Origin: Polyangium spumosum
GTDB lineage: Bacteria; Myxococcota_A; Polyangia; Polyangiales; Polyangiaceae
Direction of reading: 5' to 3'
NCBI RefSeq assembly: GCF_009649845.1
Contig: NZ_WJIE01000002.1
Coordinates: 806,001-870,000, forward strand
DNA length: 64,000 nt
In this document: positions 2,892 through 64,000 of the stretch, piece after piece
Position numbering within the stretch: position 1 is the first letter of the stretch
How the letters are laid out: the number at the start of each line of letters is the position of its first letter
The notes under the pieces: generated by a model
What the model saw: the letters and a program-made list of their open reading frames with translations, nothing else
What the model was told of the DNA's origin: nothing
The model's database searches: none
Made by a program: the position numbers and the translations under genes

Positions 2892-3662
2892 TCAGAGGGG
2901 ATCCAGGGGCGAACCCACGACGACGCAGTGGAGCGTCTCCGGATCGCACTTCGCCGGGATCTTCGGGTGGATCCCGGAGCCCCAGAGGCCCACCTCCGGG
3001 CGGGGCTCCGGCAGGCAATACTCGTCACGCGGCGTGGAGTCGACCTCGATGAAATCGGAGCACACGACCGGCGGCGAGAGCGCCGAGACCTCGTACGTCA
3101 CCTCGCAGCCCTGCCGGAGATCCTCCACCACGAGCTCCGCGGCGAACCGCAGACCCGGCACCTCGTGCGTGACGTGCATGGCGACGTCCCGCCAGGTCTC
3201 CCGCACGTGCGGGCCCGGGATGACGATGATGTTGCCGAACTCGTCGAGCGCCTCCATCGAGGGAAGACGAATCTCGGCCGGCGCGAGCTCCTCCGCGCGG
3301 CAGATCCCGTTCGCGTCGGCGAACGCGGGGAACTGTCCGAACGCATACGAGCGCTGGTCGCCGAGGGAGCCGCCGAGCTCCGCCGCCAGCCGATGATTGC
3401 CCAGCGTGCTCGATTGCACGGCGATGCTCGGCCGGCTCGGATCCGGCCCGTCCGGCCCCGCCCCCGGATACACCTCGAGCCCCACGTTCTCCCCGAGCCG
3501 GACCTCACACGAAATGCTGTCGCCCGAGAGGACCCTGTAGCGGGCAAAATAAGACATGGAAGGGACGTGGCACGGCGCGGGCGGCTCTTCACAGGCCGCG
3601 GTCGTCGCGAGCAGGAGCAAAGGGGCGATCCGGCGTAAGAGGACGAGCATGTGCGGCAGCAT
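2892..3662 (-). CDS. lipoprotein of unknown function
   Basis: 256 residues. The N-terminus has a hydrophobic stretch ending in a lipobox (LATTAAC, Cys about residue 24), so export and lipidation are expected. The mature part is rich in Cys, Pro and acidic residues, and the C-terminal third has paired cysteines that may form disulfides. No known domain is recognised. ATG at 3662 is preferred; another ATG lies 12 bases downstream and would also keep the lipobox. The gene sits immediately upstream of the TonB receptor on the same strand, so a surface-exposed partner of that receptor is plausible but is inference. Confidence 0.75.
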   Translation of the reverse strand: MLPHMLVLLRRIAPLLLLATTAACEEPPAPCHVPSMSYFARYRVLSGDSISCEVRLGENVGLEVYPGAGPDGPDPSRPSIAVQSSTLGNHRLAAELGGSLGDQRSYAFGQFPAFADANGICRAEELAPAEIRLPSMEALDEFGNIIVIPGPHVRETWRDVAMHVTHEVPGLRFAAELVVEDLRQGCEVTYEVSALSPPVVCSDFIEVDSTPRDEYCLPEPRPEVGLWGSGIHPKIPAKCDPETLHCVVVGSPLDPL

Positions 3663-3705
3663 GCTACCGGACCTGCCGATCCCCGCACAATCCGGATGGC
3701 ACGAT

Positions 3706-4248
3706 TCAGCCGCGATTCACCTGCACCGGCACCCCCGCCTCCCGCAGGAAAACGACGACCGGGCGCAGCGCGTGCGCCGGCCCCTTGCCGAGCCGGAGCT
3801 CTTCACCGTTCTTCATGGCGATGAGCAACCAGCGCGGCTCGAACCCCGGCTCGGCCGCGTTGCCCTCCACCCCCGCCACCACGGGCGTCGCCACGTGGAC
3901 GAGCGCCCGCGCGTCGAGCGTCCGGGAAAAACCCTGCCCCTCCTGCACGATCTCGCCCCGCTCGAGGTCGATCCGGAAGCGGCCGTGCTTGCGCGCGCTC
4001 CGCCTCGCCAGGGCATTACCGATCGTCGAGGCCGTCGTCCAGACCATCGCAATGAACAGGATCGGAAACGGCGCCGCGCGTAGCCCGACGATGATCGAGA
4101 CGAGGATCGACGCGAGCAGCGCGAACGGCGCGTAGAGCTTCACCATCGTCTCGGCGAAGCCCCCGGGGCAGTCGCAGACGAGCACGAGCGGGCCCTCGGC
4201 CACGACCGTGCCCGCCTCGTTGTTCAGCAAGACCTCCCGCTCCTCCAA
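3706..4248 (-). CDS. small membrane protein of unknown function
   Basis: 180 residues. Two hydrophobic segments form a hairpin (about residues 35-52 and 57-77). They separate a short N-terminal part containing CDCPGG from a C-terminal soluble part of about 95 residues. The latter looks like a small beta-rich cytoplasmic domain (RIDLERGEIVQEGQGF). The only start that covers the full open frame is TTG at 4248, so the true start is uncertain. It is encoded on the same strand as its neighbours but separated from them. No family recognised. Confidence 0.6.
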   Translation of the reverse strand: MEEREVLLNNEAGTVVAEGPLVLVCDCPGGFAETMVKLYAPFALLASILVSIIVGLRAAPFPILFIAMVWTTASTIGNALARRSARKHGRFRIDLERGEIVQEGQGFSRTLDARALVHVATPVVAGVEGNAAEPGFEPRWLLIAMKNGEELRLGKGPAHALRPVVVFLREAGVPVQVNRG

Positions 4249-54370: not shown

Positions 54371-54464
54371 ATCGGCGCCGAGGCGTGCGCTCTCCCACGC
54401 GCGCCCTCCACGCGCCCCGCCACTTCCTACCGCTTCGGCGCGTGCTTCCGGTACAATCGCCGCC

Positions 54465-57086
54465 ATGGCCCCCTCCCCGCAGCCCGCCGTCGAAGCCGCG
54501 ATCTGGCTCGCCTTCGCCCCCGGGGGCGGGCACTTCACCGCCGTCGCGGTCGGCCCCCATCACCTGCTCACGGTCGCGCGGGTCTGCGAGAACGCCCCCT
54601 ACGTGAAGCTCCTCCGCGCCGGGGAGCAGGCGCGGACGGCCGAGGTCGTGCAGTTCCTCCCGCCCGAGGAGGGGGACCTCGCCGTGCTCCGCTGCGCCGA
54701 GGAGCTGCCCCACGTCCTGCGGCTCATGCCGGTCGACGAGATCAAGGACTTCGAGCTCGACACGCCCGTCACCCTCGTCGGCTTCCGCGACAGCGTCGAG
54801 AACGCCCTCGCCAAGCGCGCCGTCGTCCTGCACTGGACGAGCGTCTCCCTCATCGCCGGCGAGCCCGACGAGCCGCCGCCGCGCAAATCCCAGCCCGACA
54901 CGCTGCCGCCGCTGCCGCGCCTGCTCCAGGTCGTCCAGGAGAACGAGGCCGGCGGCCCCATCCTCGACAGCCGCCAGCGCCTCGTCGGCATCGCCGGCCG
55001 CCTCGACGGCGAGGGCGGCGTCGAGGGCGTCGTCACCACGCTCGAGCGCTTCTACGAGCGCAACCGCAAGTGGAAGATCCCCCTCGGCCCGCCCGCGCCG
55101 CGCGTCGCCAAGGCGCCCACGATGGCGCAGTCGCTCGCCCTCATGCACCTCGTCGCCGCCCAGCACGAGGAGCACGACGGCTCGAACCCCGCCGCCCTCG
55201 TCGAGCATTACAAGGCCGCCCTCCGCCTCGACGCCTCCTCGGGCGCCGCGCACCTCGGCCTCGCTTGCGCCAAGAGCCTCGTCAACGAGCTCGACGAGGA
55301 CGTCTTCCGCAGCATCGGCCGCGCTTGTGAGCTCTTGCCGTCCTCCGAGTGGTCGCCCGAGTGCGCCGACACCCGCCTCGCCAACCTGCTCCGCTCCTCC
55401 AAGCACCTGCACGGCGTCGTCACCGCCCTGCGCGCCGACCTCAAGCGTGGCCGCCCGCTCGCCGAGTGGGCCGCCCTCGGCCGCGCCGTCGCCGACCTCG
55501 TCCATGCCCCCGTCGAGGAAGACGAAGGCCGCCCTCGCCCGCCCGAGAAGGCCGCCGGCCGCCTCCTGCTCTGGGCTGGCCAGCCTCGCGCCGTCATCGC
55601 CATCCCCTCGCGCGAGCAGCCCGACATCCTCCGCGCCGCCGCCTTCCTCCTCGTCGACCACCCCGAGCAGGCCCTCTTCTGGCTCGACGATCCCCAGGAC
55701 GACGAGGCCGTCGAGTCGAGCCGCATGGAGACCACGCAGCAGCTCGTGCTCGCGCTCCGCTGGATCGCGCGCTGCCGCGAGGGCATGTACGACGGGCTGC
55801 TCTCGCGCGAGGTCGCCGAGAAACACGGCGCCATCCTCGGCAAGCTCATGCCTGGCGGCGACGTCCTCTCCTGGCACGCCCACGCCCTCGGGAAGGCCCA
55901 CCACGGCGAGATCGAGAGCGGCCTGGAGGACCTCGACCGCGCCATGCGCATGCTCTCGCCGATGGCCTTGCCGGGCCGCTGGTCGCGCGAGTTCCCCGGC
56001 CTGCTCCCCACGCCGGCCGAGCTCGCGGCCGCGTTTGGCAAGGTCGTGCTCGACCAGGGCAGGGCCGAGCTCGCGCGCAAGGTGCTCGAGAAGCTGCCCA
56101 TGCCGGCCTCGGACGACGCCCACGCCTCCGAGCTCACCGCCGTCGAGAAGCGGCTACGCGCGCTCGCCGGCATCGAGTCGGACGTCGAGGTCTCGCCCGA
56201 CCGCGCCCTGCTCAAGGCGAACCGCGAGGATCCCCGGGCCGTGCGCCTCGCCCGCGTCCTCGCTTATTTCGCCGAGAGCGACCTGCCACGCGAGCGCCTC
56301 GGGGATCTCGGCGAGGCGCTGCCGATCCTGCTCAAGCTCGGCTTCCTGCGCGAGGAGGCCGACATCGTCTCCTACGAGCCCACGTTCCGGTCGCGCGTGC
56401 GCGAGCTCGCCACGCCCGATCAACGCACGGCCGCTTTGCACGACGGGCTCGACCTCTTGCTCATGGCCTACCTCGAGGCGAGCGCGCGCGAGCGCACCGA
56501 GCTCTGGTCGCACATCCAGGAGGCCACGAAGACCGCCCTCGAGCACGACGTCGAGCATGTCCCCGTGGCCGAGCTGCTCGCCCGCGTGGGCAACCAGCGC
56601 GCGCGGGAGCTCTCGTACGCCGAGGCGCGGGACCTGCTCGAGCGCGCCTCCGACCTCGGCAGCCGCGCCTCCGCGCCGGCCGATCTCTGCGCCGAGATCG
56701 ACATGGACCTCGGCTGGGTCGAGGTCCTCTCCAACAGCACGCAGCGCTCGCAGGAGCGCCTCGAGCGCGCATTGAATTTTTACAATGAAATGGCAATGAC
56801 CTCGACCGGCGCGACCCCGCACCGTCGAATGGCGCGAATTCATTACAGCCTCGCGCGGCTCGCCGTGGGCAAGAGTGATCGCGACGCGGCGTACATGAAT
56901 GCGTGTCGCGCGCTGGAGGAGGCCGATCGTGGGTTCGAGCCGGGGTCGCGGAAGGCGGCGCAGATCTACACGAGCCTGGCGCACCTCTTCGTGGATCTCG
57001 GGGATCACCTGCGTGCGCGCAAGGCCGCGGCGAGGATCGCGCCGCGCGAGCGGGAGACGCGGACGGATCTCACGCTCGACGCCTGA
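54465..57086 (+). CDS. TPR-like protein with a degenerate trypsin-like domain
   Basis: 873 residues from ATG 54465. The N-terminal about 200 residues follow the trypsin/HtrA strand order, but the catalytic His position reads LLTVARV (Arg39 in place of His), the Asp is kept (GDLAVL, Asp71) and the Ser site reads NEAGGPI (Ala162 in place of Ser, with the GGP kept). It should therefore be a pseudoprotease that may bind peptides. The remaining about 650 residues are helical repeats of TPR type (for example AALVEHYKAALRLDASSGAAHLGLA near residue 245, and several arrays after residue 640). No signal peptide. Downstream lies the hairpin repeat, then the type VI locus. Confidence 0.78.
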   Translation: MAPSPQPAVEAAIWLAFAPGGGHFTAVAVGPHHLLTVARVCENAPYVKLLRAGEQARTAEVVQFLPPEEGDLAVLRCAEELPHVLRLMPVDEIKDFELDTPVTLVGFRDSVENALAKRAVVLHWTSVSLIAGEPDEPPPRKSQPDTLPPLPRLLQVVQENEAGGPILDSRQRLVGIAGRLDGEGGVEGVVTTLERFYERNRKWKIPLGPPAPRVAKAPTMAQSLALMHLVAAQHEEHDGSNPAALVEHYKAALRLDASSGAAHLGLACAKSLVNELDEDVFRSIGRACELLPSSEWSPECADTRLANLLRSSKHLHGVVTALRADLKRGRPLAEWAALGRAVADLVHAPVEEDEGRPRPPEKAAGRLLLWAGQPRAVIAIPSREQPDILRAAAFLLVDHPEQALFWLDDPQDDEAVESSRMETTQQLVLALRWIARCREGMYDGLLSREVAEKHGAILGKLMPGGDVLSWHAHALGKAHHGEIESGLEDLDRAMRMLSPMALPGRWSREFPGLLPTPAELAAAFGKVVLDQGRAELARKVLEKLPMPASDDAHASELTAVEKRLRALAGIESDVEVSPDRALLKANREDPRAVRLARVLAYFAESDLPRERLGDLGEALPILLKLGFLREEADIVSYEPTFRSRVRELATPDQRTAALHDGLDLLLMAYLEASARERTELWSHIQEATKTALEHDVEHVPVAELLARVGNQRARELSYAEARDLLERASDLGSRASAPADLCAEIDMDLGWVEVLSNSTQRSQERLERALNFYNEMAMTSTGATPHRRMARIHYSLARLAVGKSDRDAAYMNACRALEEADRGFEPGSRKAAQIYTSLAHLFVDLGDHLRARKAAARIAPRERETRTDLTLDA

Positions 57087-57095
57087 AGATGCGTT

Positions 57096-57208
57096 GCCTC
57101 ACCCCCCAACCCCCTCTCCGCGCCGCGGAGAGGGGGTGATTCGCACACGTTCGGCCTCCCTCCCTCTCCACCGCGTGGAGAGGGAGGGTTGGGGTGGGTG
57201 AGGGAGGC
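57096..57208. repeat. bipartite hairpin repeat, copy 2
   Basis: The outer GCCTCACCCCCCAAC pairs imperfectly with GTTGGGGTGGGTGAGG. Two perfect inner hairpins are CCCCCTCTCCGC-3-GCGGAGAGGGGG (12-base arms) and CCCTCCCTCTCCAC-3-GTGGAGAGGGAGGG (14-base arms). Both are the same CCCTCTCC/GGAGAGGG theme as at 31648-31760. It begins ten bases after the pseudoprotease-TPR stop and ends about 40 bases before the DUF2169 start, a position suited to a terminator that insulates the type VI locus. Confidence 0.82.
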
Positions 57209-57247
57209 TTGTAGCCGGGTGGCGAGTGCGCGTACCATCCCCGCGTA

Positions 57248-58336
57248 ATGAATTTCGAGGCGCTCGTCGAGAACATCAGCTGGGCGAGCGTCGGCGCCGA
57301 CGTGATGATGGACCGCCACGGCCGTGACGTCGCCGTCGTCGTCGCCAAGATGGCCTACAAGGTGAGCCGCGAGGGCGCGCCGCGGCTCGCGCTCGCGCCG
57401 GTGCGCCGCGTGGACGAGGGCGACGGCGCCGCGGGCGTGCGTTTTCCCGCGGACCTCGTGGCCGACGAGAAACCCGGCACCGACGTCGGCCTCGTCGGCG
57501 TCGCGTATCCGCCGCCTCGTTCGGCCGGGAACAAGGGGCGCGTGTATGCGTGGCTCCAGGTGGGATCGATTCGCAAGGTCGTCGTGGTGCACGGGCCACG
57601 CGTCTACGTGAAGAGCTGGCGCGGCGGCGTCGCGCCCTCGGATCCTGCGCCGCTCGTCGAGCCCGTGCCGCTCCGCTACGACAAATGCCAGGGCGGCCTC
57701 GACCCGATCTCGGGCGCGTTCGAGCCTTCGAACCCGATCGGCGTGGGTTTTTCCAGCCAGCCCACGCGGCTGCTCGGCGAGCCTTGCCCGCAGCTCGAAC
57801 CCGCTTCGATCGAGGAGGGCGGCGCGCCGTCGCACCCCTCACACGGCTGCTTCGCCCCGATCCCTGCGCACTGGGAGCCGCGGCGCTCGCGGATCGGCAC
57901 GCACGACGCCGCCTGGGCGAAGGGCCGCGCGCCCGTGCGCCCGCGTGATTTTGATCCGATGCACCACGCCTGGAGCGTCCCGGGCCTGCACAGCGAGGCG
58001 CCGCTCGTCGGCGACGAGCAGATCGAGGTGGGCGGTATCTTGCCGGAGGGCGCCTGGCGCTTCCGTTTGCCCCGGTACACGATCACGTTCGGCAGCCTGA
58101 TCGACGGCAAACGAGAGGCGATCGAGGCGCACCTCGACGGTCTCCTCATCGACACCGAGACCCGCGTCGTGGAGCTCACGTGGCGGGCGTCGATCGTCTT
58201 GCCGCGAAAATGGGAGCGGCTCGAGCGGATCTATGTGGTCGGCGTGGGCGCGTTGCCCGAGGACGTGATCCGCGACCCGGGCCAGCGCGTAGGGACGGCG
58301 AGGGCCGCGGAGCCGGCGCGCGCGAGGAGTGTGTAG
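57248..58336 (+). CDS. DUF2169 protein of the type VI locus
   Basis: 362 residues. DUF2169 features are the N-terminal VVVAKMAYKVS, DVGLVGVAYPP, VVVHGPRVYVKSWRGG and RYDKCQGGLDP with PSNPIGVGF, and near the end EVGGILPEGAWRFRLPRY. The family accompanies VgrG and PAAR proteins and is thought to act as an effector/tip adaptor. The first vgrG starts four bases after its stop, so it opens a vgrG operon. Unlike the copy at 31723 it has no Pro-rich tail. Confidence 0.85.
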   Translation: MNFEALVENISWASVGADVMMDRHGRDVAVVVAKMAYKVSREGAPRLALAPVRRVDEGDGAAGVRFPADLVADEKPGTDVGLVGVAYPPPRSAGNKGRVYAWLQVGSIRKVVVVHGPRVYVKSWRGGVAPSDPAPLVEPVPLRYDKCQGGLDPISGAFEPSNPIGVGFSSQPTRLLGEPCPQLEPASIEEGGAPSHPSHGCFAPIPAHWEPRRSRIGTHDAAWAKGRAPVRPRDFDPMHHAWSVPGLHSEAPLVGDEQIEVGGILPEGAWRFRLPRYTITFGSLIDGKREAIEAHLDGLLIDTETRVVELTWRASIVLPRKWERLERIYVVGVGALPEDVIRDPGQRVGTARAAEPARARSV

Positions 58337-58339
58337 GCC

Positions 58340-60553
58340 ATGAGCAAACAAGCGTTGCGCATCGAGGTATTCTTGAGCATCGGCGACGCCTCGTGGCCGG
58401 CGCTGCGGGCGCGCGTCGAGGAGGGGATCAGCGAGCTCGGCGGGGCCTGGGTCGAGGTCGCCGTGGGCACGGACCTCGACGTCGAGGCGATGCTCGAAGA
58501 GACGGCCACGCTCGTCATTCTCTGGGACGGGCAGGAGAAGCGCCGCTTCACGATGCAGCTCGCGCGGGGCCGCTTCCTCGACGAGGAGGACGGCCACCTG
58601 CACTACGAGCTCGAGCTCCGGCCCACGTTGTGGTTCCTCGGCCTCGACAAGAACACCCGCAAATGGCGTGATCAGCGCGCCGAGCCGATCGTCTCGAAGG
58701 TCCTCGGCGAGGGCTCGGTCGCGCACGCGTGGCGCACGACGCGGCAATCGGACCTGCAGCCTTATTGCATGCAGTATCGTGAGACGAACCTCGCCTTCGT
58801 GTCGCGGATGCTGGAGTTCGAGGGGTTTTATTATACCTTCGACCCCGACGGCACGATGATCCTCGGCGACACGTCCTCCGCCTCGCCCGAGGTCGAGGGC
58901 GGCGCGGAGTTCGAGCTCATCGACGCCGCGGGGGCGCTCGCGCACGGCGATTTCGGCGTGACCTCGTTCGAGCGCGGCGCGGCCGTGGGATCGGGAAAGG
59001 CCACGGTCAACGACTACAACTGGAAGACGCCGGCGCTCTCGTTGCTCGCGTCGGCCACGGGGGCGAAGGACACGCACCTCGAGATCTACGATTACCCCGT
59101 CGGGTACAGGAGCCCGGCCCAGGGTGAGGTCCTCGCGAGGCTCCGGGTCGAGGCGCTCTGCGCGGAGAAGCGGTTCGTCGAGGGCACGAGCACGGTGTTT
59201 TCCTTCGCGCCGGCGCGCATCTTTTCGTTCACGCACGAGGAGGCCACGAGCTTCAGCGGTCGTTACCTGCTCGTTCACGTCGAGCACGACTACCGCGAGG
59301 AGGGCGGCGTCGCGCACTACGAGAACCGCTTCCGGGCGATCCCCGCGGACGTGCCGTACCGGCCGGCGCTGAAGACGGAGCGCCCCGAGATCCAGGGCAA
59401 CCACACGGCGATGGTGCGTGGCCCCGCGGGCGAGGAGATCCACACGGACGCTTATGGCCGCGCGAAGGTGCAGTTCCACTGGGATCGCGAGGCGAAGGGC
59501 AGCGACGAGGACTCGCGCTGGATCCGCATGCTGCAGGAGATCTCGACCTCGATCGCGCTCTCGCGTGTCGGCTGGGAGATCAGCGTCGGTTACATCGACG
59601 GCGACCCGACGCGGCCGATGGGCCTGGCGCGGCAGATCAACGGGCAGATGGTCCCCATGTACAACCAGCCCGCGTTCCGGAACCGGATGACGATCCGCAC
59701 GGAGACGTACCCCGGCAAGGCGGGGTTCAACGAGCTTCGTTTGGAGGACTCGGCCGGCTCCATGCACATGGACTGGCACGCGCAGAAGGACTGGAAGAAC
59801 CTGATCGAGCACGACCGCACCGAGACGATCGGGAACAACCTCACGGTGCTCGTGGAGTCGAACTCCACGCGCGTGGTCGAGAAGACCCAGCAGTACACCA
59901 TCGGCGCCGACCAGACGCGGACCGTGGGCGGCAGCGTCATCAACAAGGTCGAGCTCGATCGCACCCACGCGATCGGCGGCGACGAGTCGATCCACGTCGA
60001 GGTCGGGGCCGACACGGCCGTGACCGGCAGCGAGGTCGAGACCGTGGGCGGCACGCGGTACACGCGGGCGGGCAACGACGAGGCCGGCTCGATCGATCGC
60101 AACATCCAGAAGACGCTGACGCGGATCGTGGGCGGCTCGCAGATCTCGATGGCGGGCGGCTCGGTGGCGCACGAGGGCGGCAAGGTGCTCGTCGAGATCG
60201 CCTCCGGGTCGAAGGTCACGGTCGCGATCGACGAGAGCATCAAGCAGGCGGTCGCCGACAAACACGGCACGTTCGTGAGCGGGTACGTCCTGCGCAAGTC
60301 GAAGGGCGACATGAGCGTGTCCGCGAAGAAGACCACCGTGAACGTGGGCGCCTCCGCGATCTTCCGCTCGGCCGAGCGCATGGAGCTCCGCAGCAAGGCG
60401 ATCGAGCTCGTCGCGTCGGCCTCGATCGCCCTGCGCGGCGAGGGGCTCACGATCGAGATGACGCCCTCGGGCGTGAGCATCACCGGGCCGCTCAAGCAGG
60501 AGAGCGGCACGAAGATCACCTACCGCGGCAACCCCGAGAAGCTGACGCCCTGA
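58340..60553 (+). CDS. vgrG: type VI secretion tip protein VgrG (first copy)
   Basis: 737 residues. The N-terminal gp27-like part includes QYRETNLAFVSRMLEFEGFYYTF, the family hallmark, and EHDYREEGGVAHYENRFRAIP. The OB-fold junction is HTDAYGRAKVQFHWDREAKG and LSRVGWEISVGYIDGDPTRP. The C-terminal gp5-like beta-helix follows with repeated TIGNNLTVLVESNSTRVV-type strands. VgrG trimers form the puncturing tip of the type VI needle and carry effectors. No extra effector domain is visible. Thirteen bases separate it from the second vgrG. Confidence 0.93.
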   Translation: MSKQALRIEVFLSIGDASWPALRARVEEGISELGGAWVEVAVGTDLDVEAMLEETATLVILWDGQEKRRFTMQLARGRFLDEEDGHLHYELELRPTLWFLGLDKNTRKWRDQRAEPIVSKVLGEGSVAHAWRTTRQSDLQPYCMQYRETNLAFVSRMLEFEGFYYTFDPDGTMILGDTSSASPEVEGGAEFELIDAAGALAHGDFGVTSFERGAAVGSGKATVNDYNWKTPALSLLASATGAKDTHLEIYDYPVGYRSPAQGEVLARLRVEALCAEKRFVEGTSTVFSFAPARIFSFTHEEATSFSGRYLLVHVEHDYREEGGVAHYENRFRAIPADVPYRPALKTERPEIQGNHTAMVRGPAGEEIHTDAYGRAKVQFHWDREAKGSDEDSRWIRMLQEISTSIALSRVGWEISVGYIDGDPTRPMGLARQINGQMVPMYNQPAFRNRMTIRTETYPGKAGFNELRLEDSAGSMHMDWHAQKDWKNLIEHDRTETIGNNLTVLVESNSTRVVEKTQQYTIGADQTRTVGGSVINKVELDRTHAIGGDESIHVEVGADTAVTGSEVETVGGTRYTRAGNDEAGSIDRNIQKTLTRIVGGSQISMAGGSVAHEGGKVLVEIASGSKVTVAIDESIKQAVADKHGTFVSGYVLRKSKGDMSVSAKKTTVNVGASAIFRSAERMELRSKAIELVASASIALRGEGLTIEMTPSGVSITGPLKQESGTKITYRGNPEKLTP

Positions 60554-60566
60554 AGGAGAACGCGCG

Positions 60567-62747
60567 ATGGAGCTTGCATTCGCCGAGCTGTCTGTTCAGG
60601 GGATCGAGGTGCGCCGCGTGCTCTCGATGCGCGGGGAGGAGGCGCTCTCGACGCTCTTCCGGTACGACGTCGAGGCCGAGATCGAGCTGCCCTTGCCCGA
60701 CGTCGACGTGGTGATCGGCGCCGAGGCGGTCCTCACGATGCGGGATCAGGCCTACAAGGAGCGCGTCGTCACGGGCGTGGTCGCCGAGGCGAGCGCGCGG
60801 GCCTTCGACAACGAGCGCGGCCGCGTCACGATCGTCCTGCGGCCGATGATGTGGCGGCAGTCGCTCGGCCGCGACTGCTACGCCCTGCAGGACGTCGACG
60901 TGCAGAAGATCGTCGACGACGTGCTCGCCGACTACACGGGCAAGTACCGCTGGGCCCTCACGCGCGGCTACCCCGAGTATCCCTACCGCGTGCAGTATCG
61001 CGAGGACGACTGGACCTACGTGAGCCGCGTCCTCGAGGAGGAGGGCATCCACTACTGGTTCGATCACGAGGCCGGGTCGATGACCGTGTTCGCGGACGAC
61101 TCGACCGTCGCGCCCGACATGCCCGGCGGCGCGCTCTTGCCCTGGGTGCGCGAGAGCGCGCTCCAGCCGAAGCAGGACGCCGTGACGGAGCTCGGCTCGA
61201 CCAGCGCCGCGTCGACGGGCCGGTTCGCGATGAAGTCGTTCGACCTCAAACGGCCGACCGTGCCGATCCAGGCGAAGGCGGGCGCGGGCAAGCACGAGTT
61301 TTACGACGCGCCGGGCGGCGGCACGGGGATGGAGACCATCCTCGAGGCGCGGGTGAGCGATCAGCGGGACGCGAACGTGGCGTCACGCGCGGGCGTGGCT
61401 GGGCTCTCGACGAGCGTCCGCCCCTTCCCGGGCGTCGTGCTCGAGATCGACGGGCACCCGGTCGGCAAGATGAACACGCGTTACCTCGTGACCCGCGTCG
61501 AGGTCCGCGGCGACGAACACGAGCCGTGCTCGACGCGCTTCCAGGCGATCCGCGCGGAGGTCCCGTTCCGGCCGCTGCAGAAGACGCCCGAGGCGAAGCA
61601 GGCGGGCCTGCAGCTCGGCCAGATCGTCGGGCCCGACGGGCAGGAGGTTCATCCGGACGAGCTCGCGCGGGTGCGGACGATCTTGCACTGGGATCGGCTC
61701 GGGCCGCGGAGCGAGAAGGGCGGCACGTGGATGCGCGTGGCCCAGCGCGCGGCGCCCGGATCGATGCTGTTTCCGCGCATGGGCTGGAACGTCGCGACCT
61801 TCAACGAGGAGGGCGGCGTCGACGCGCCGAGCGTGATCTGGCGCATCCACGACGGCGAGCGCCTGCCCGAGTACAAGCTGCCGATGAACATGACCCGCGT
61901 CGTGTGGAAGACGGCGACGGTCCCGGCGGACGGCACGGCGAACGAGATCTACTTCGAGGACAGAGAGAACGCCGAGGAGATGTTCATCAACGCCTCGCGC
62001 GACATGAACTACATCATCCTCGACGCGAAATACGAGAACGTGCACAACGACTCGTGGCGCACCGTCGGCGTGAACCACGACCTCACGATCCACGCCTCGC
62101 TCGACGAGCGCGTGATCGGCGATCAGACGATCTCGATCGGCGGGAACGAGACCCTCACCGTCTCCGGCCAGCGCATCAAGACCGTGTCGGGCAACGAGAC
62201 GGAGACGGTGGGCGGCTCGCGGAACATCCGCATCGGCGACGCGCACCGCACCTCCGTGCGGGGAGATCGCACGCTCTCGGTGGGCGGATCGATGATCGAG
62301 ATCACGCCGAACAGCATCAACCAGACGGCGCGCGACGTGGTGACGGTCGTGGGCGGCAGCGTCGTGAAGATCGCGGGCGAGGACGTCTCGGAGGCGGCGC
62401 GCAAGGACTCGACGCAGGTGATCTCGGGCTCGAAGATCGAGGTCGCGAAGAAGGATCGGGCGCTCGACGTGGACACCGAGTGGACCGAGGAGGTGGCGAG
62501 CTCCATCGTCTGCGTGTCGAACGAGAAGTACCTCGACAACGCCGACACCACCGCGACGTGGATCGTCGCCGACTCGGTCCTCGGCAGCGCGCCCGTCGTG
62601 CACATCGAGGCGATCGACTCGATCCGGCTCACCTGCGGGAGCAGCGTGCTCACGCTGACGCCGGAGGCGATCACGATCACGACCCAGAACCTCGATCTGT
62701 CCGGCGCGACGCTCGACGCCGACAGCGAGCTTGTCGAGCACAACTGA
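60567..62747 (+). CDS. vgrG: type VI secretion tip protein VgrG (second copy)
   Basis: 726 residues, AAGGAGAA eight bases before ATG 60567. The gp27-like part has VQYREDDWTYVSRVLEEEGIHYWFDHE. The junction reads HPDELARVRTILHWDRLG and FPRMGWNVATFNEEGGVDAP, where other VgrGs have a FLEGDPDRP-like end, so this loop has diverged. The beta-helix includes SIGGNETLTVSGQRIKTVSGNETETVGGS. No appended enzymatic domain. The ribosome-binding site of the third vgrG overlaps its stop codon. Confidence 0.92.
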   Translation: MELAFAELSVQGIEVRRVLSMRGEEALSTLFRYDVEAEIELPLPDVDVVIGAEAVLTMRDQAYKERVVTGVVAEASARAFDNERGRVTIVLRPMMWRQSLGRDCYALQDVDVQKIVDDVLADYTGKYRWALTRGYPEYPYRVQYREDDWTYVSRVLEEEGIHYWFDHEAGSMTVFADDSTVAPDMPGGALLPWVRESALQPKQDAVTELGSTSAASTGRFAMKSFDLKRPTVPIQAKAGAGKHEFYDAPGGGTGMETILEARVSDQRDANVASRAGVAGLSTSVRPFPGVVLEIDGHPVGKMNTRYLVTRVEVRGDEHEPCSTRFQAIRAEVPFRPLQKTPEAKQAGLQLGQIVGPDGQEVHPDELARVRTILHWDRLGPRSEKGGTWMRVAQRAAPGSMLFPRMGWNVATFNEEGGVDAPSVIWRIHDGERLPEYKLPMNMTRVVWKTATVPADGTANEIYFEDRENAEEMFINASRDMNYIILDAKYENVHNDSWRTVGVNHDLTIHASLDERVIGDQTISIGGNETLTVSGQRIKTVSGNETETVGGSRNIRIGDAHRTSVRGDRTLSVGGSMIEITPNSINQTARDVVTVVGGSVVKIAGEDVSEAARKDSTQVISGSKIEVAKKDRALDVDTEWTEEVASSIVCVSNEKYLDNADTTATWIVADSVLGSAPVVHIEAIDSIRLTCGSSVLTLTPEAITITTQNLDLSGATLDADSELVEHN

Positions 62748-62757: not shown

Positions 62758-64000
62758 GTGGCAACCGAGGATCCGGTCCTTTATTTCATCGAGCTCGGCG
62801 GCACGACCTACCGGGTGACGACGGTCTCGGGCGAAGAGGCGCTCTCGCGGACGTACCGCTTCGAGATCACGCTGCACGTCGAGCCCACCGATCCGCTCGA
62901 CCCCGACGCGCTCGTCTTCTCCGACGCGACGCTCGAGCTCGCGCGCGAGGGCACGCTCCGGCGCATCCAGGGCGTCGTGACCCGGATCAAGCGCGCCGCC
63001 ACGCGCAAGGGCAACGCGGGCACGGGCCAAGTCACGCTCGTCCTCGAGCCGCGCCTCGCGACGGCCCGGCACCGCATGGACATCCGCATCTTCCGCGACA
63101 AATCGGCCCCCGAGATCGTGGCCGAGGTGATCGGGGCGCACGGCGTCGCGGTCGAACAGCGCCTCGTCGGCTCGTACGTCAAGCGCCCCTACTGCGTGCA
63201 GATGCGCGAGTCGGACCTCGATTTCGCGGCGCGCCTCTGCGAGGACGAGGGGATCTTCTACGTCGTCGACGACGAGGGCCGCATGGTGCTCGGCGACTTC
63301 ACGAGCGCCTACGTCGACGGCCCGGGCGCGCTCGCCTTCCACCACGACTCGGGTTTGCACGGGCAACGCGACGCCGTCTACGAGGTCGGCTGGGCCGGGC
63401 GCGCGACGGCGGGCAAGGTCTCGCTGCGTGATTTCAACCCCGAGCGCCCGCGCCTCGACATGGACGTCTCCGCGAAGGGCCCGACGGCGTGGGGGCCCGA
63501 GTGGTACGACTATCCGGGCGAATACGAGCTGCCCGCGCAGGGCCAGGCCAAGGCGAACCTGCGCGCCCAGGCGCTCGCCTGCGCGAAAAAACGTCTGGCC
63601 GGACGGACCACGGCGCCGCGCACGATCACGGGCGGGCTCTTCACGCTCGTCGACGCGCCGCCGGGCGTGGAGGACGGCGAGTACGTCGTGACGAAGATCG
63701 TGCACGCCTGGGATCGCGCCACGAGCGCGTTTTCGCTCGGCTTCGAGGCGCTGCCCGGGAGCACGGTGTACCGGCCGCCGGTCGAGACCTACGTCCCGAC
63801 CCTGCCGAACCCGCTCACGGGCTTCGTGACGGGGCCCGAGGGCGCCGACATCCACACGGACCCGTGGGGCCGCGTGAAGGTGCATTTCCCCTGGGATCGG
63901 CTGCAGCCGAAGGACGACACCTGCTCGCACTGGATCCCGATCCTGCAGGACAACACGGGCCGCTCGTCGGCGATGCCGCGTATCGGCTGGGAGGTGCTCT
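62758..64000 (+). CDS. vgrG: type VI secretion tip protein VgrG (third copy, cut by window end)
   Basis: At least 414 residues; the frame is open to the window edge. Start is GTG 62758, with a perfect AGGAGG five bases upstream. The gp27-like part has VQMRESDLDFAARLCEDEGIFYVVDDEG and PGEYELPAQGQAKANLRAQAL; the junction is HTDPWGRVKVHFPWDRLQPKDD, and the last visible residues SAMPRIGWEVL are the classical VgrG motif. The C-terminal beta-helix and any effector domain lie beyond the window. This copy is closest to the usual VgrG consensus. Confidence 0.93.
   Translation, partial: MATEDPVLYFIELGGTTYRVTTVSGEEALSRTYRFEITLHVEPTDPLDPDALVFSDATLELAREGTLRRIQGVVTRIKRAATRKGNAGTGQVTLVLEPRLATARHRMDIRIFRDKSAPEIVAEVIGAHGVAVEQRLVGSYVKRPYCVQMRESDLDFAARLCEDEGIFYVVDDEGRMVLGDFTSAYVDGPGALAFHHDSGLHGQRDAVYEVGWAGRATAGKVSLRDFNPERPRLDMDVSAKGPTAWGPEWYDYPGEYELPAQGQAKANLRAQALACAKKRLAGRTTAPRTITGGLFTLVDAPPGVEDGEYVVTKIVHAWDRATSAFSLGFEALPGSTVYRPPVETYVPTLPNPLTGFVTGPEGADIHTDPWGRVKVHFPWDRLQPKDDTCSHWIPILQDNTGRSSAMPRIGWEVL

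What the first reader, a model, noticed from the sequence alone, without database searches (positions are those of the whole stretch)
54465..57086. Pseudoprotease-TPR protein
The trypsin-like N-terminal domain keeps its strand order, the Asp and the GGP turn, but the catalytic His is Arg39 and the catalytic Ser is Ala162. With about 650 residues of TPR-like repeats, it looks like a peptide-binding scaffold that has abandoned catalysis. Related proteins in predatory bacteria with an intact triad might show the ancestral role.
Basis: partly seen in the sequence, partly recalled or inferred. Interest (0 to 1): 0.64.

Follow-up and report, generated by a model that had tools for sequence, protein, structure and literature searches.

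The report
Dead-protease scaffold beside T6SS genes
A predatory soil bacterium keeps a long helical protein whose protease-like front end has lost two of the three residues needed to cut proteins, next to genes for a molecular harpoon (the type VI secretion system), which suggests that a dead enzyme has become a holding platform for that weapon.

Summary
The 873-residue ORF at 54465-57086(+) has an N-terminal region that matches the Trypsin_2 profile over its whole length. Its catalytic His is Arg39 and its catalytic Ser is Ala162; Asp71 and the GGP turn remain. All three residues are identical in 6 of 6 genomes of the genus, under purifying selection (dN/dS about 0.2): a maintained pseudoprotease. 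The rest is predicted all-helical; TPR signals are significant but patchy. AlphaFold2 failed on the N-domain (pLDDT 33), so the fold rests on profiles.

The gene heads a type VI secretion (T6SS) spike module (DUF2169, three VgrGs, then a PAAR-like, a PRK06147-like and a HEAT-like protein). The order up to the third VgrG holds in 6 of 6 genomes, while the window's upstream genes were not found upstream in the other five. The same module in relative G070 lacks the gene, and no full-length homologue was found outside the genus.

Most likely a cytoplasmic scaffold for that spike module, with the dead trypsin fold as a binding surface (inferred, about 0.45). No intact-triad relative was found; conserved dead trypsin domains recur in this family.

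The parts
54465..57086 (+). CDS of the pseudoprotease-TPR protein (873 aa, P0001)
   Evidence: translation without internal stops; full-length homologues at 88-90% identity in 5 further genomes of the genus; dN/dS about 0.20
54537..54992 (+). Trypsin-like domain, residues 25-176
   Evidence: Pfam Trypsin_2 positions 2-144 of 144, E=1.4e-5; independent profile E=5.6e-8
54579..54581 (+). Codon of Arg39 at the catalytic His position
   Evidence: alignment of 86 domains; Arg in 6 of 6
54675..54677 (+). Codon of Asp71, retained catalytic Asp
   Evidence: Asp in 6 of 6
54948..54950 (+). Codon of Ala162 at the catalytic Ser position (ENEAGGP)
   Evidence: Ala in 6 of 6
55125..57053 (+). Helical region, residues 221-863, helical-repeat body
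   Evidence: AlphaFold2 secondary structure at low to moderate confidence; Foldseek matches at low TM
56571..56786 (+). TPR_12 match, residues 703-774
   Evidence: E=6.6e-6, 26.7 bits against a cut-off of 30.1
57096..57207 (.). Palindromic repeat insertion between the target and DUF2169, absent from the same gap in the 5 other genomes; boundaries approximate
   Evidence: two perfect 14-nt hairpins; dispersed in the genome; gap of 60 bases from stop to start codon in the 5 others, 161 here
57248..58336 (+). DUF2169 protein (T6SS spike chaperone family)
   Evidence: PF09937 E=1.6e-55
58340..60553 (+). VgrG1 (T6SS spike)
   Evidence: PF05954 E=1.5e-60, PF22178 E=6.4e-25
60567..62747 (+). VgrG2 (T6SS spike)
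   Evidence: PF05954 E=7e-56
62785..64000 (+). VgrG3; start approximate (where homology to VgrG1 begins), runs off the window
   Evidence: G000:C2:868785-870878; PF05954 on the part held in L012

Best explanation
It is a cytoplasmic pseudoprotease-TPR scaffold that works as a dedicated accessory of the adjacent T6SS spike module. The trypsin-like domain, which should no longer cut, serves as a binding surface, and the helical-repeat body docks module components (for example DUF2169, VgrG or the PAAR-like protein) so that this particular spike is assembled or loaded. Shown here: a trypsin-like domain without its His and Ser, a predicted helical body, conservation in the genus and a fixed gene order with the module. 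Inferred: the T6SS role, the scaffold mechanism, and the cytoplasmic location (no evident signal peptide by eye; no tool run).
For: Trypsin_2 profile over its whole length with His and Ser replaced. Arg39/Asp71/Ala162 invariant in 6 of 6, purifying selection (dN/dS 0.17 for residues 1-205, 0.21 for the rest). Target-DUF2169-VgrG1-VgrG2-VgrG3 order in 6 of 6 genomes (window plus L012, L001-L004, L013), and the next genes (d1978, PAAR-like, a 524-aa protein, PRK06147-like, HEAT-like) in order in the 4 genomes read that far (L012; L013/L014; L015; L016). The window's three upstream genes (labelled antiporter-like and Usp-like by eye) give no tblastn hit at E 1e-10 in the 5.7-8 kb upstream in the other five. 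T6SS sheath genes are present in 7 of 7 genomes tested. DUF2169 proteins are spike chaperones (PMC11883445, abstract) and form accessory complexes of varying composition (PMC13373197, abstract and section 12).
Against: The target is absent from the orthologous module of G070 (VgrG1 71% identical) and from 12 further loci around VgrG1 homologues, so such modules exist without it. DUF2169 has its own promoter-like block, conserved in 6 genomes (read by eye), and here a palindromic repeat lies between the two genes, so co-transcription is not established. All carriers are one genus, so shared order may partly reflect descent; two of them (L001, L003) also share upstream genes with each other. The fold is not confirmed by structure and no relevant solved structure matched by sequence (none; three unrelated at E 0.2-1; a TPR design at E 0.92). 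No interaction data exist.
Confidence: 0.45

Rival explanations
1. A pseudoprotease-TPR scaffold or signalling adaptor with a role unrelated to T6SS; it sits beside the module by inherited position in one genus.
For: Module present without the gene in G070; separate promoter-like block before DUF2169 (by eye); conserved inactive trypsin domains also occur in two other Polyangiaceae protein families and are reported in bacterial conflict systems (PMC7159879, passages).
Against: The target stays with the module in 6 of 6 genomes although the window's upstream genes are not found upstream in the other five.
Confidence: 0.33
2. A T6SS cargo, effector or immunity protein of the module rather than an assembly factor.
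For: First gene of a spike island that contains a PAAR-like protein with a long C-terminal region.
Against: No toxin or immunity family matches the target. It is 88-90% identical with low dN/dS, unlike fast-diversifying effector/immunity pairs (general knowledge). The PAAR-like protein is the more variable member: 66-68% to the genus and 58% to G070 over most of its length, beside one short N-terminal piece at 85%.
Confidence: 0.12
3. A ligand- or metal-binding repurposed protease in the manner of MamO, using the old active site or the invariant H32-H33 pair.
For: MamO is a trypsin-like protein with a solved structure, repurposed for metal binding through a di-histidine motif (PMC4794232, passages). 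H32 and H33 are invariant here.
Against: No test here; two adjacent histidines are weak evidence, and the MamO pair lies elsewhere in the fold (recalled).
Confidence: 0.06
4. The protease is still active with a shifted or alternative catalytic set.
For: Asp71 and the GGP turn are kept.
Against: No His near 39 and no Ser near 162; GGP is GAP in L004; the usual Gly at 160 (75 of 86) and Asp/Asn at 161 (61 of 86) are Asn and Glu.
Confidence: 0.03
5. A decaying pseudogene or a chance ORF in high-GC DNA.
For: Long antisense ORFs overlap it.
Against: dN/dS about 0.2 and full-length conservation in 6 genomes; codon-position GC of a coding frame.
Confidence: 0.01

Closest known systems
Trypsin_2 / S1 chymotrypsin-fold peptidases (PF13365)
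   Same: Full-length profile match, catalytic Asp and GGP turn kept
   Different: His is Arg, Ser is Ala; no PDZ match; fused to about 650 mostly helical residues
MamO, repurposed trypsin-like pseudoprotease of magnetotactic bacteria (PMC4794232, passages)
   Same: Trypsin-like domain that lost catalysis and was retained for another function
   Different: MamO is homologous to HtrA proteases and has a C-terminal transporter domain; the target has a helical-repeat body and a T6SS neighbourhood
[quoted passage not shown]
   Same: Inactive trypsin domain kept in a bacterial multidomain protein
   Different: No vWA or NTPase domain matched in the target
Tvp accessory systems of T6SS, DUF2169/TvpA with VgrG and PAAR/DUF4150 (PMC13373197 abstract, passages and section 12; PMC11883445 abstract)
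   Same: The locus has DUF2169, VgrG, a PAAR-like protein and a PRK06147-like protein, a mix that resembles Class II
   Different: The target matches no family of the described Tvp components, and 'TPR' and 'tetratricopeptide' occur 0 times in the main text of PMC13373197
Two conserved Polyangiaceae families of dead trypsin-like proteins (one with PDZ)
   Same: Both His and Ser lost, one copy of each family in each of 5 genomes
   Different: Mostly other replacements at the two positions; no TPR match in the 8 of 10 scanned; no BLASTP link to the target at E 1e-8

Membership tests
Trypsin_2 / S1 peptidase superfamily | Significant whole-domain profile match | tested here: met
   E=1.4e-5; 6 of 6 members match, best E 4.1e-6; independent profile, 0 of 200 shuffles. 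The hmmscan score, 26.3 bits, is 1.3 under the gathering score; the genome search gave 29.8.
Trypsin_2 / S1 peptidase superfamily | Chymotrypsin double-barrel fold | tested here: inconclusive
   AlphaFold2 with 5 close sequences, mean pLDDT 33.3
Active S1 serine protease | Catalytic His | tested here: not met
   Arg39 in 6 of 6
Active S1 serine protease | Catalytic Asp | tested here: met
   Asp71 in 6 of 6
Active S1 serine protease | Catalytic Ser | tested here: not met
   Ala162 in 6 of 6
HtrA/DegP | PDZ domain after the protease domain | tested here: not met
   No PDZ among the matches up to E=10, whereas another dead trypsin family here shows it
TPR protein | TPR motifs | tested here: met
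   TPR_12 E=6.6e-6 at 703-774, below the curated cut-off; TPR_12 and TPR_19 match 6 of 6 members at E<=1; helices in 221-863. Number of repeats not established.
Tvp-type T6SS spike locus | DUF2169 + VgrG + PAAR/PAAR-like in one locus | tested here: met
Tvp Class II | PRK06147-type protein (TvpD) | tested here: inconclusive
   NF004798 E=1.7e-41 over nearly its whole length, but 142.6 bits against a cut-off of 342
Tvp Class II | DUF6484 TvpC | tested here: inconclusive
   No DUF6484 match among the 10 neighbours scanned (to E 0.001; six of them again to E 10, with HMMER's filters); a divergent TvpC could be missed
Tvp component (target itself) | A DUF2169, pentapeptide, DUF6484/DUF3540 or PRK06147 domain | tested here: not met
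   none matched
Known anti-phage defence proteins | PADLOC model match | tested here: not met
   Only the trypsin part of two RT-Protease_XI models, E=0.0041 and 0.034

The most novel reading that the evidence does not exclude
Polyangium has recruited a dead trypsin fold plus a TPR superhelix as a new accessory of T6SS spike assembly, beyond the described DUF2169/Tvp components, with a role no described Tvp protein has.
Probability: 0.35. Interest if true: 0.58.

Novelty: new variant of a known kind. Interest (0 to 1): 0.42.

Why it matters
If true, it adds a genus-specific part to T6SS spike assembly and a clean bacterial case of a protease fold turned into a binding module, with a relative (G070) that carries the same module without it as a natural control. 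It also points to a stock of conserved dead trypsin domains in these predatory bacteria: 12 of 86 Trypsin_2 domains in 5 genomes lack both His and Ser.

Tried and rejected
Shifted catalytic residues: none in the window protein within three residues of the aligned positions. Relatives outside the genus: by protein, one weak TPR-region hit (G011, E=4.2e-4, 33% over 696-857, at most 5 candidates scored per genome); by N-domain profile, one weak hit (G057, E=0.0017 over residues 32-98, at most 16 scored); by full profile, 4 of 377 genomes, all four of the same genus (2 scored). Within the 86 Trypsin_2 proteins the best non-self hit of the N-domain profile was G168_C99 (whole-sequence E=0.00025, best domain 0.01), a trypsin-like protein that keeps His and Ser and has no TPR match. 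Only 18 of the 84 other Trypsin_2 proteins were scanned for TPR.

Syntenic relatives: 0 of 14 fetched loci around VgrG1 homologues, from 10 genomes, encode a relative of the target (tblastn to E 1; best profile hit E=0.073). Two of the 14 are the two sides of the G070 module (L054, L055). Three end at a contig edge 1.6-2.4 kb upstream of DUF2169 (L059, L060, L063), so absence there is weak. A coding-frame screen upstream of DUF2169 in 12 of them listed frames that I did not scan further; in L056 and L064 no frame passed its filter. The genes upstream in G070 were read by eye only.

Structure prediction: N-domain failed; full length mean pLDDT 46.8, with the N-domain not folded. PDB by sequence: nothing relevant. 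PHROGs: one match at E 0.26 outside the trypsin domain, taken as chance. HHalign matched the N-half only (residues 25-108).

Literature: in the rows shown no title or abstract start describes a trypsin-TPR protein in a T6SS locus; not all hits were listed in each. The only paper holding VgrG, trypsin-like and tetratricopeptide together was a Janthinobacterium genome paper (listing only). PMC12799240 (trypsin-like protease/nuclease pairs in antiviral systems, passages) was considered; those proteases are described as active and paired with a nuclease, which is not the case here.

Rejected: reading the antisense ORF (623 aa) as the gene; the + frame carries the selection signal.

Full report
The observation. 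The window lies in contig C2 of a 10.76-Mb genome whose closest named relatives are Polyangium. The ORF 54465-57086(+) encodes 873 aa. Pfam matches Trypsin_2 at residues 25-176 over profile positions 2-144 of 144, E=1.4e-5, 26.3 bits against a gathering score of 27.6; the genome search scored the same stretch at 29.8 bits, over the cut-off. A profile made from 84 other Trypsin_2 domains of five Polyangiaceae genomes, with the target left out, finds the target (E=5.6e-8) and the six N-domains (down to 4.9e-10), none of 200 shuffles and not the reversed protein. In HHalign the N-domain alignment reaches probability 95.7 against that profile, but over residues 25-108 only; the reversed alignment reaches 0.2.

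The catalytic residues. In an alignment of the 86 domains, the His column holds His in 74, the Asp column Asp in 85 and the Ser column Ser in 71 of 86. The target has Arg39, Asp71 and Ala162. The same three residues stand in 6 of 6 genomes, with synonymous codon changes at 39 (CGG/CGC) and 162 (GCC/GCG). Mean dN/dS over 15 pairs is 0.17 for residues 1-205 and 0.21 for the rest. It is therefore a maintained pseudoprotease and not a decaying gene. One species (L004) has GAP instead of GGP, which fits a turn that is no longer needed for catalysis.

The rest of the protein. AlphaFold2 with five close sequences gives helices in 221-863, with pLDDT of 70 or more for 146 of 873 residues and mean 46.8. 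The 50 best PDB matches to this model have TM-scores of 0.11-0.23 on the query; they are mostly large-complex subunits that I recall as TPR scaffolds, and three titles name TPR designs or domains (9qhb, 8chy, 1w3b). Significant TPR matches are TPR_12 at 703-774 and TPR_19 in relatives (best E 1.8e-5). So 'helical-repeat body, at least partly TPR' is supported; 650 residues of regular TPR is not shown. The separate model of 1-214 failed, pLDDT 33, so the trypsin fold rests on sequence profiles.

Distribution. Full-length homologues occur in the 6 genomes of the genus and in none of the other 177 of 183 order genomes (one weak TPR-only hit). In 377 phylum genomes drawn evenly from a larger group the 4 matches were all of the genus. 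These searches score only the best few candidates per genome. No relative with an intact triad was found.

The neighbourhood. Downstream on the same strand lie DUF2169 (E=1.6e-55), two VgrGs in the window and a third running off its end, then an unassigned 253-aa protein (d1978), a PAAR-like protein (Tox-PAAR-like, E=2.5e-16), a 524-aa protein without a family match (my working label in the scripts, D2169b, is not a call result), a PRK06147-like protein (E=1.7e-41, below the equivalog cut-off) and a HEAT-like protein (weak, E 0.0024). The target-DUF2169-VgrG1-VgrG2-VgrG3 order holds in 6 of 6 genomes; the further order was read in 4 (in L013 the PAAR-like match comes in two overlapping pieces). 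The gap from the target's stop codon to the DUF2169 start codon is 60 bases in the five others and 161 here, because of an inserted palindromic repeat. A genome search with that stretch gave 61 match rows, the query itself and reverse-strand matches of the same palindromes included, with 40 of 93 candidates scored. The window's three upstream genes have no match in the 5.7-8 kb upstream in the other five; L001 and L003 share their upstream genes with each other, and L013 shares none with the other four. The same module stands in G070 (VgrG1 71%, VgrG2 72%, VgrG3 74% identical) without the target, and G070 gave no match elsewhere. T6SS sheath genes are found in 7 of 7 genomes tested, on other contigs or megabases away, so this is an orphan spike island.

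How it most likely works. DUF2169 proteins are proposed to be chaperones that keep VgrG-PIPY spikes secretion-competent (PMC11883445, abstract), and DUF2169-centred Tvp complexes vary in composition between species (PMC13373197, abstract and section 12; it lists Myxococcota among the phyla with DUF2169). A helical-repeat protein with a dead trypsin domain, fixed at the head of such a module and without an evident signal peptide (by eye), is best read as an extra cytoplasmic scaffold for that spike. The role of the dead domain as a binding surface is inference; MamO (PMC4794232, passages) shows that a trypsin-like fold can be repurposed in bacteria, and inactive trypsin domains are reported as the rule in one position of a class of bacterial conflict systems (PMC7159879, passages). 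Against this reading stand the module's existence without the target, the separate promoter-like block before DUF2169 (by eye), and the fact that all carriers are one genus.

Base rate. Of 86 Trypsin_2 domains in five genomes, 12 lack both His and Ser: 2 are the target and its G149 orthologue; 5 belong to one family, one in each genome, with PDZ in the 4 scanned of 5; 5 belong to another family, one in each genome, without PDZ or TPR in the 4 scanned of 5. Three more keep His but lack Ser at the aligned column, one of them without the Asp too. Dead trypsin domains are thus recurrent in this family, which lowers the surprise of the finding and raises the value of asking what they bind.

Verdict.

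Noticed in passing
L110:1400-2953(+), L119:1510-2940(+), L123:1515-3185(-), L126:1550-3028(+), L136:1549-3138(+): A conserved HtrA-like family (Trypsin_2 plus PDZ in the 4 of 5 scanned; L119 not scanned) with both catalytic His and Ser lost (S/D/L or S/D/V), one copy in each of 5 Polyangiaceae genomes, 54-86% identical. Frames are stop to stop.
   Followed up: partly
L107:1749-3107(+), L108:3342-6401(-), L117:1331-2770(-), L118:1343-2737(-), L131:1809-3023(+): A second conserved family of dead trypsin-like proteins, without PDZ or TPR match in the 4 of 5 scanned (L117 not scanned), one copy in each of the same 5 genomes, 31-89% identical, with differing replacements at His and Ser.
   Followed up: partly
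window 57096-57207 (approximate): Dispersed palindromic repeat (two perfect 14-nt hairpins), inserted in this genome only among the 6 between the target and DUF2169; 61 match rows in the genome, self and reverse-strand rows included.
   Followed up: partly
window 57205-57248 and about 54405-54465: Promoter-like blocks, read by eye, conserved in 6 genomes close before the start codons of DUF2169 (TTGTGG/TTGTAG ... TACCAT) and of the target (TACACT/TACAAT), which could mean short-leader or leaderless transcripts.
   Followed up: no
L103:1729-4008(+), L104 around 3538-4020(+): Trypsin_2 proteins with the Ser motif written GSNGSP, so that Asn stands at the aligned Ser column, in both genomes of the genus examined, next to a second Trypsin_2 gene 36-38% identical.
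   Followed up: no
L012:1978-2739(+): Conserved 253-aa protein between VgrG3 and the PAAR-like protein, with only weak DUF4440 and Imm49 matches (E about 0.03): a possible immunity or adaptor protein.
   Followed up: no
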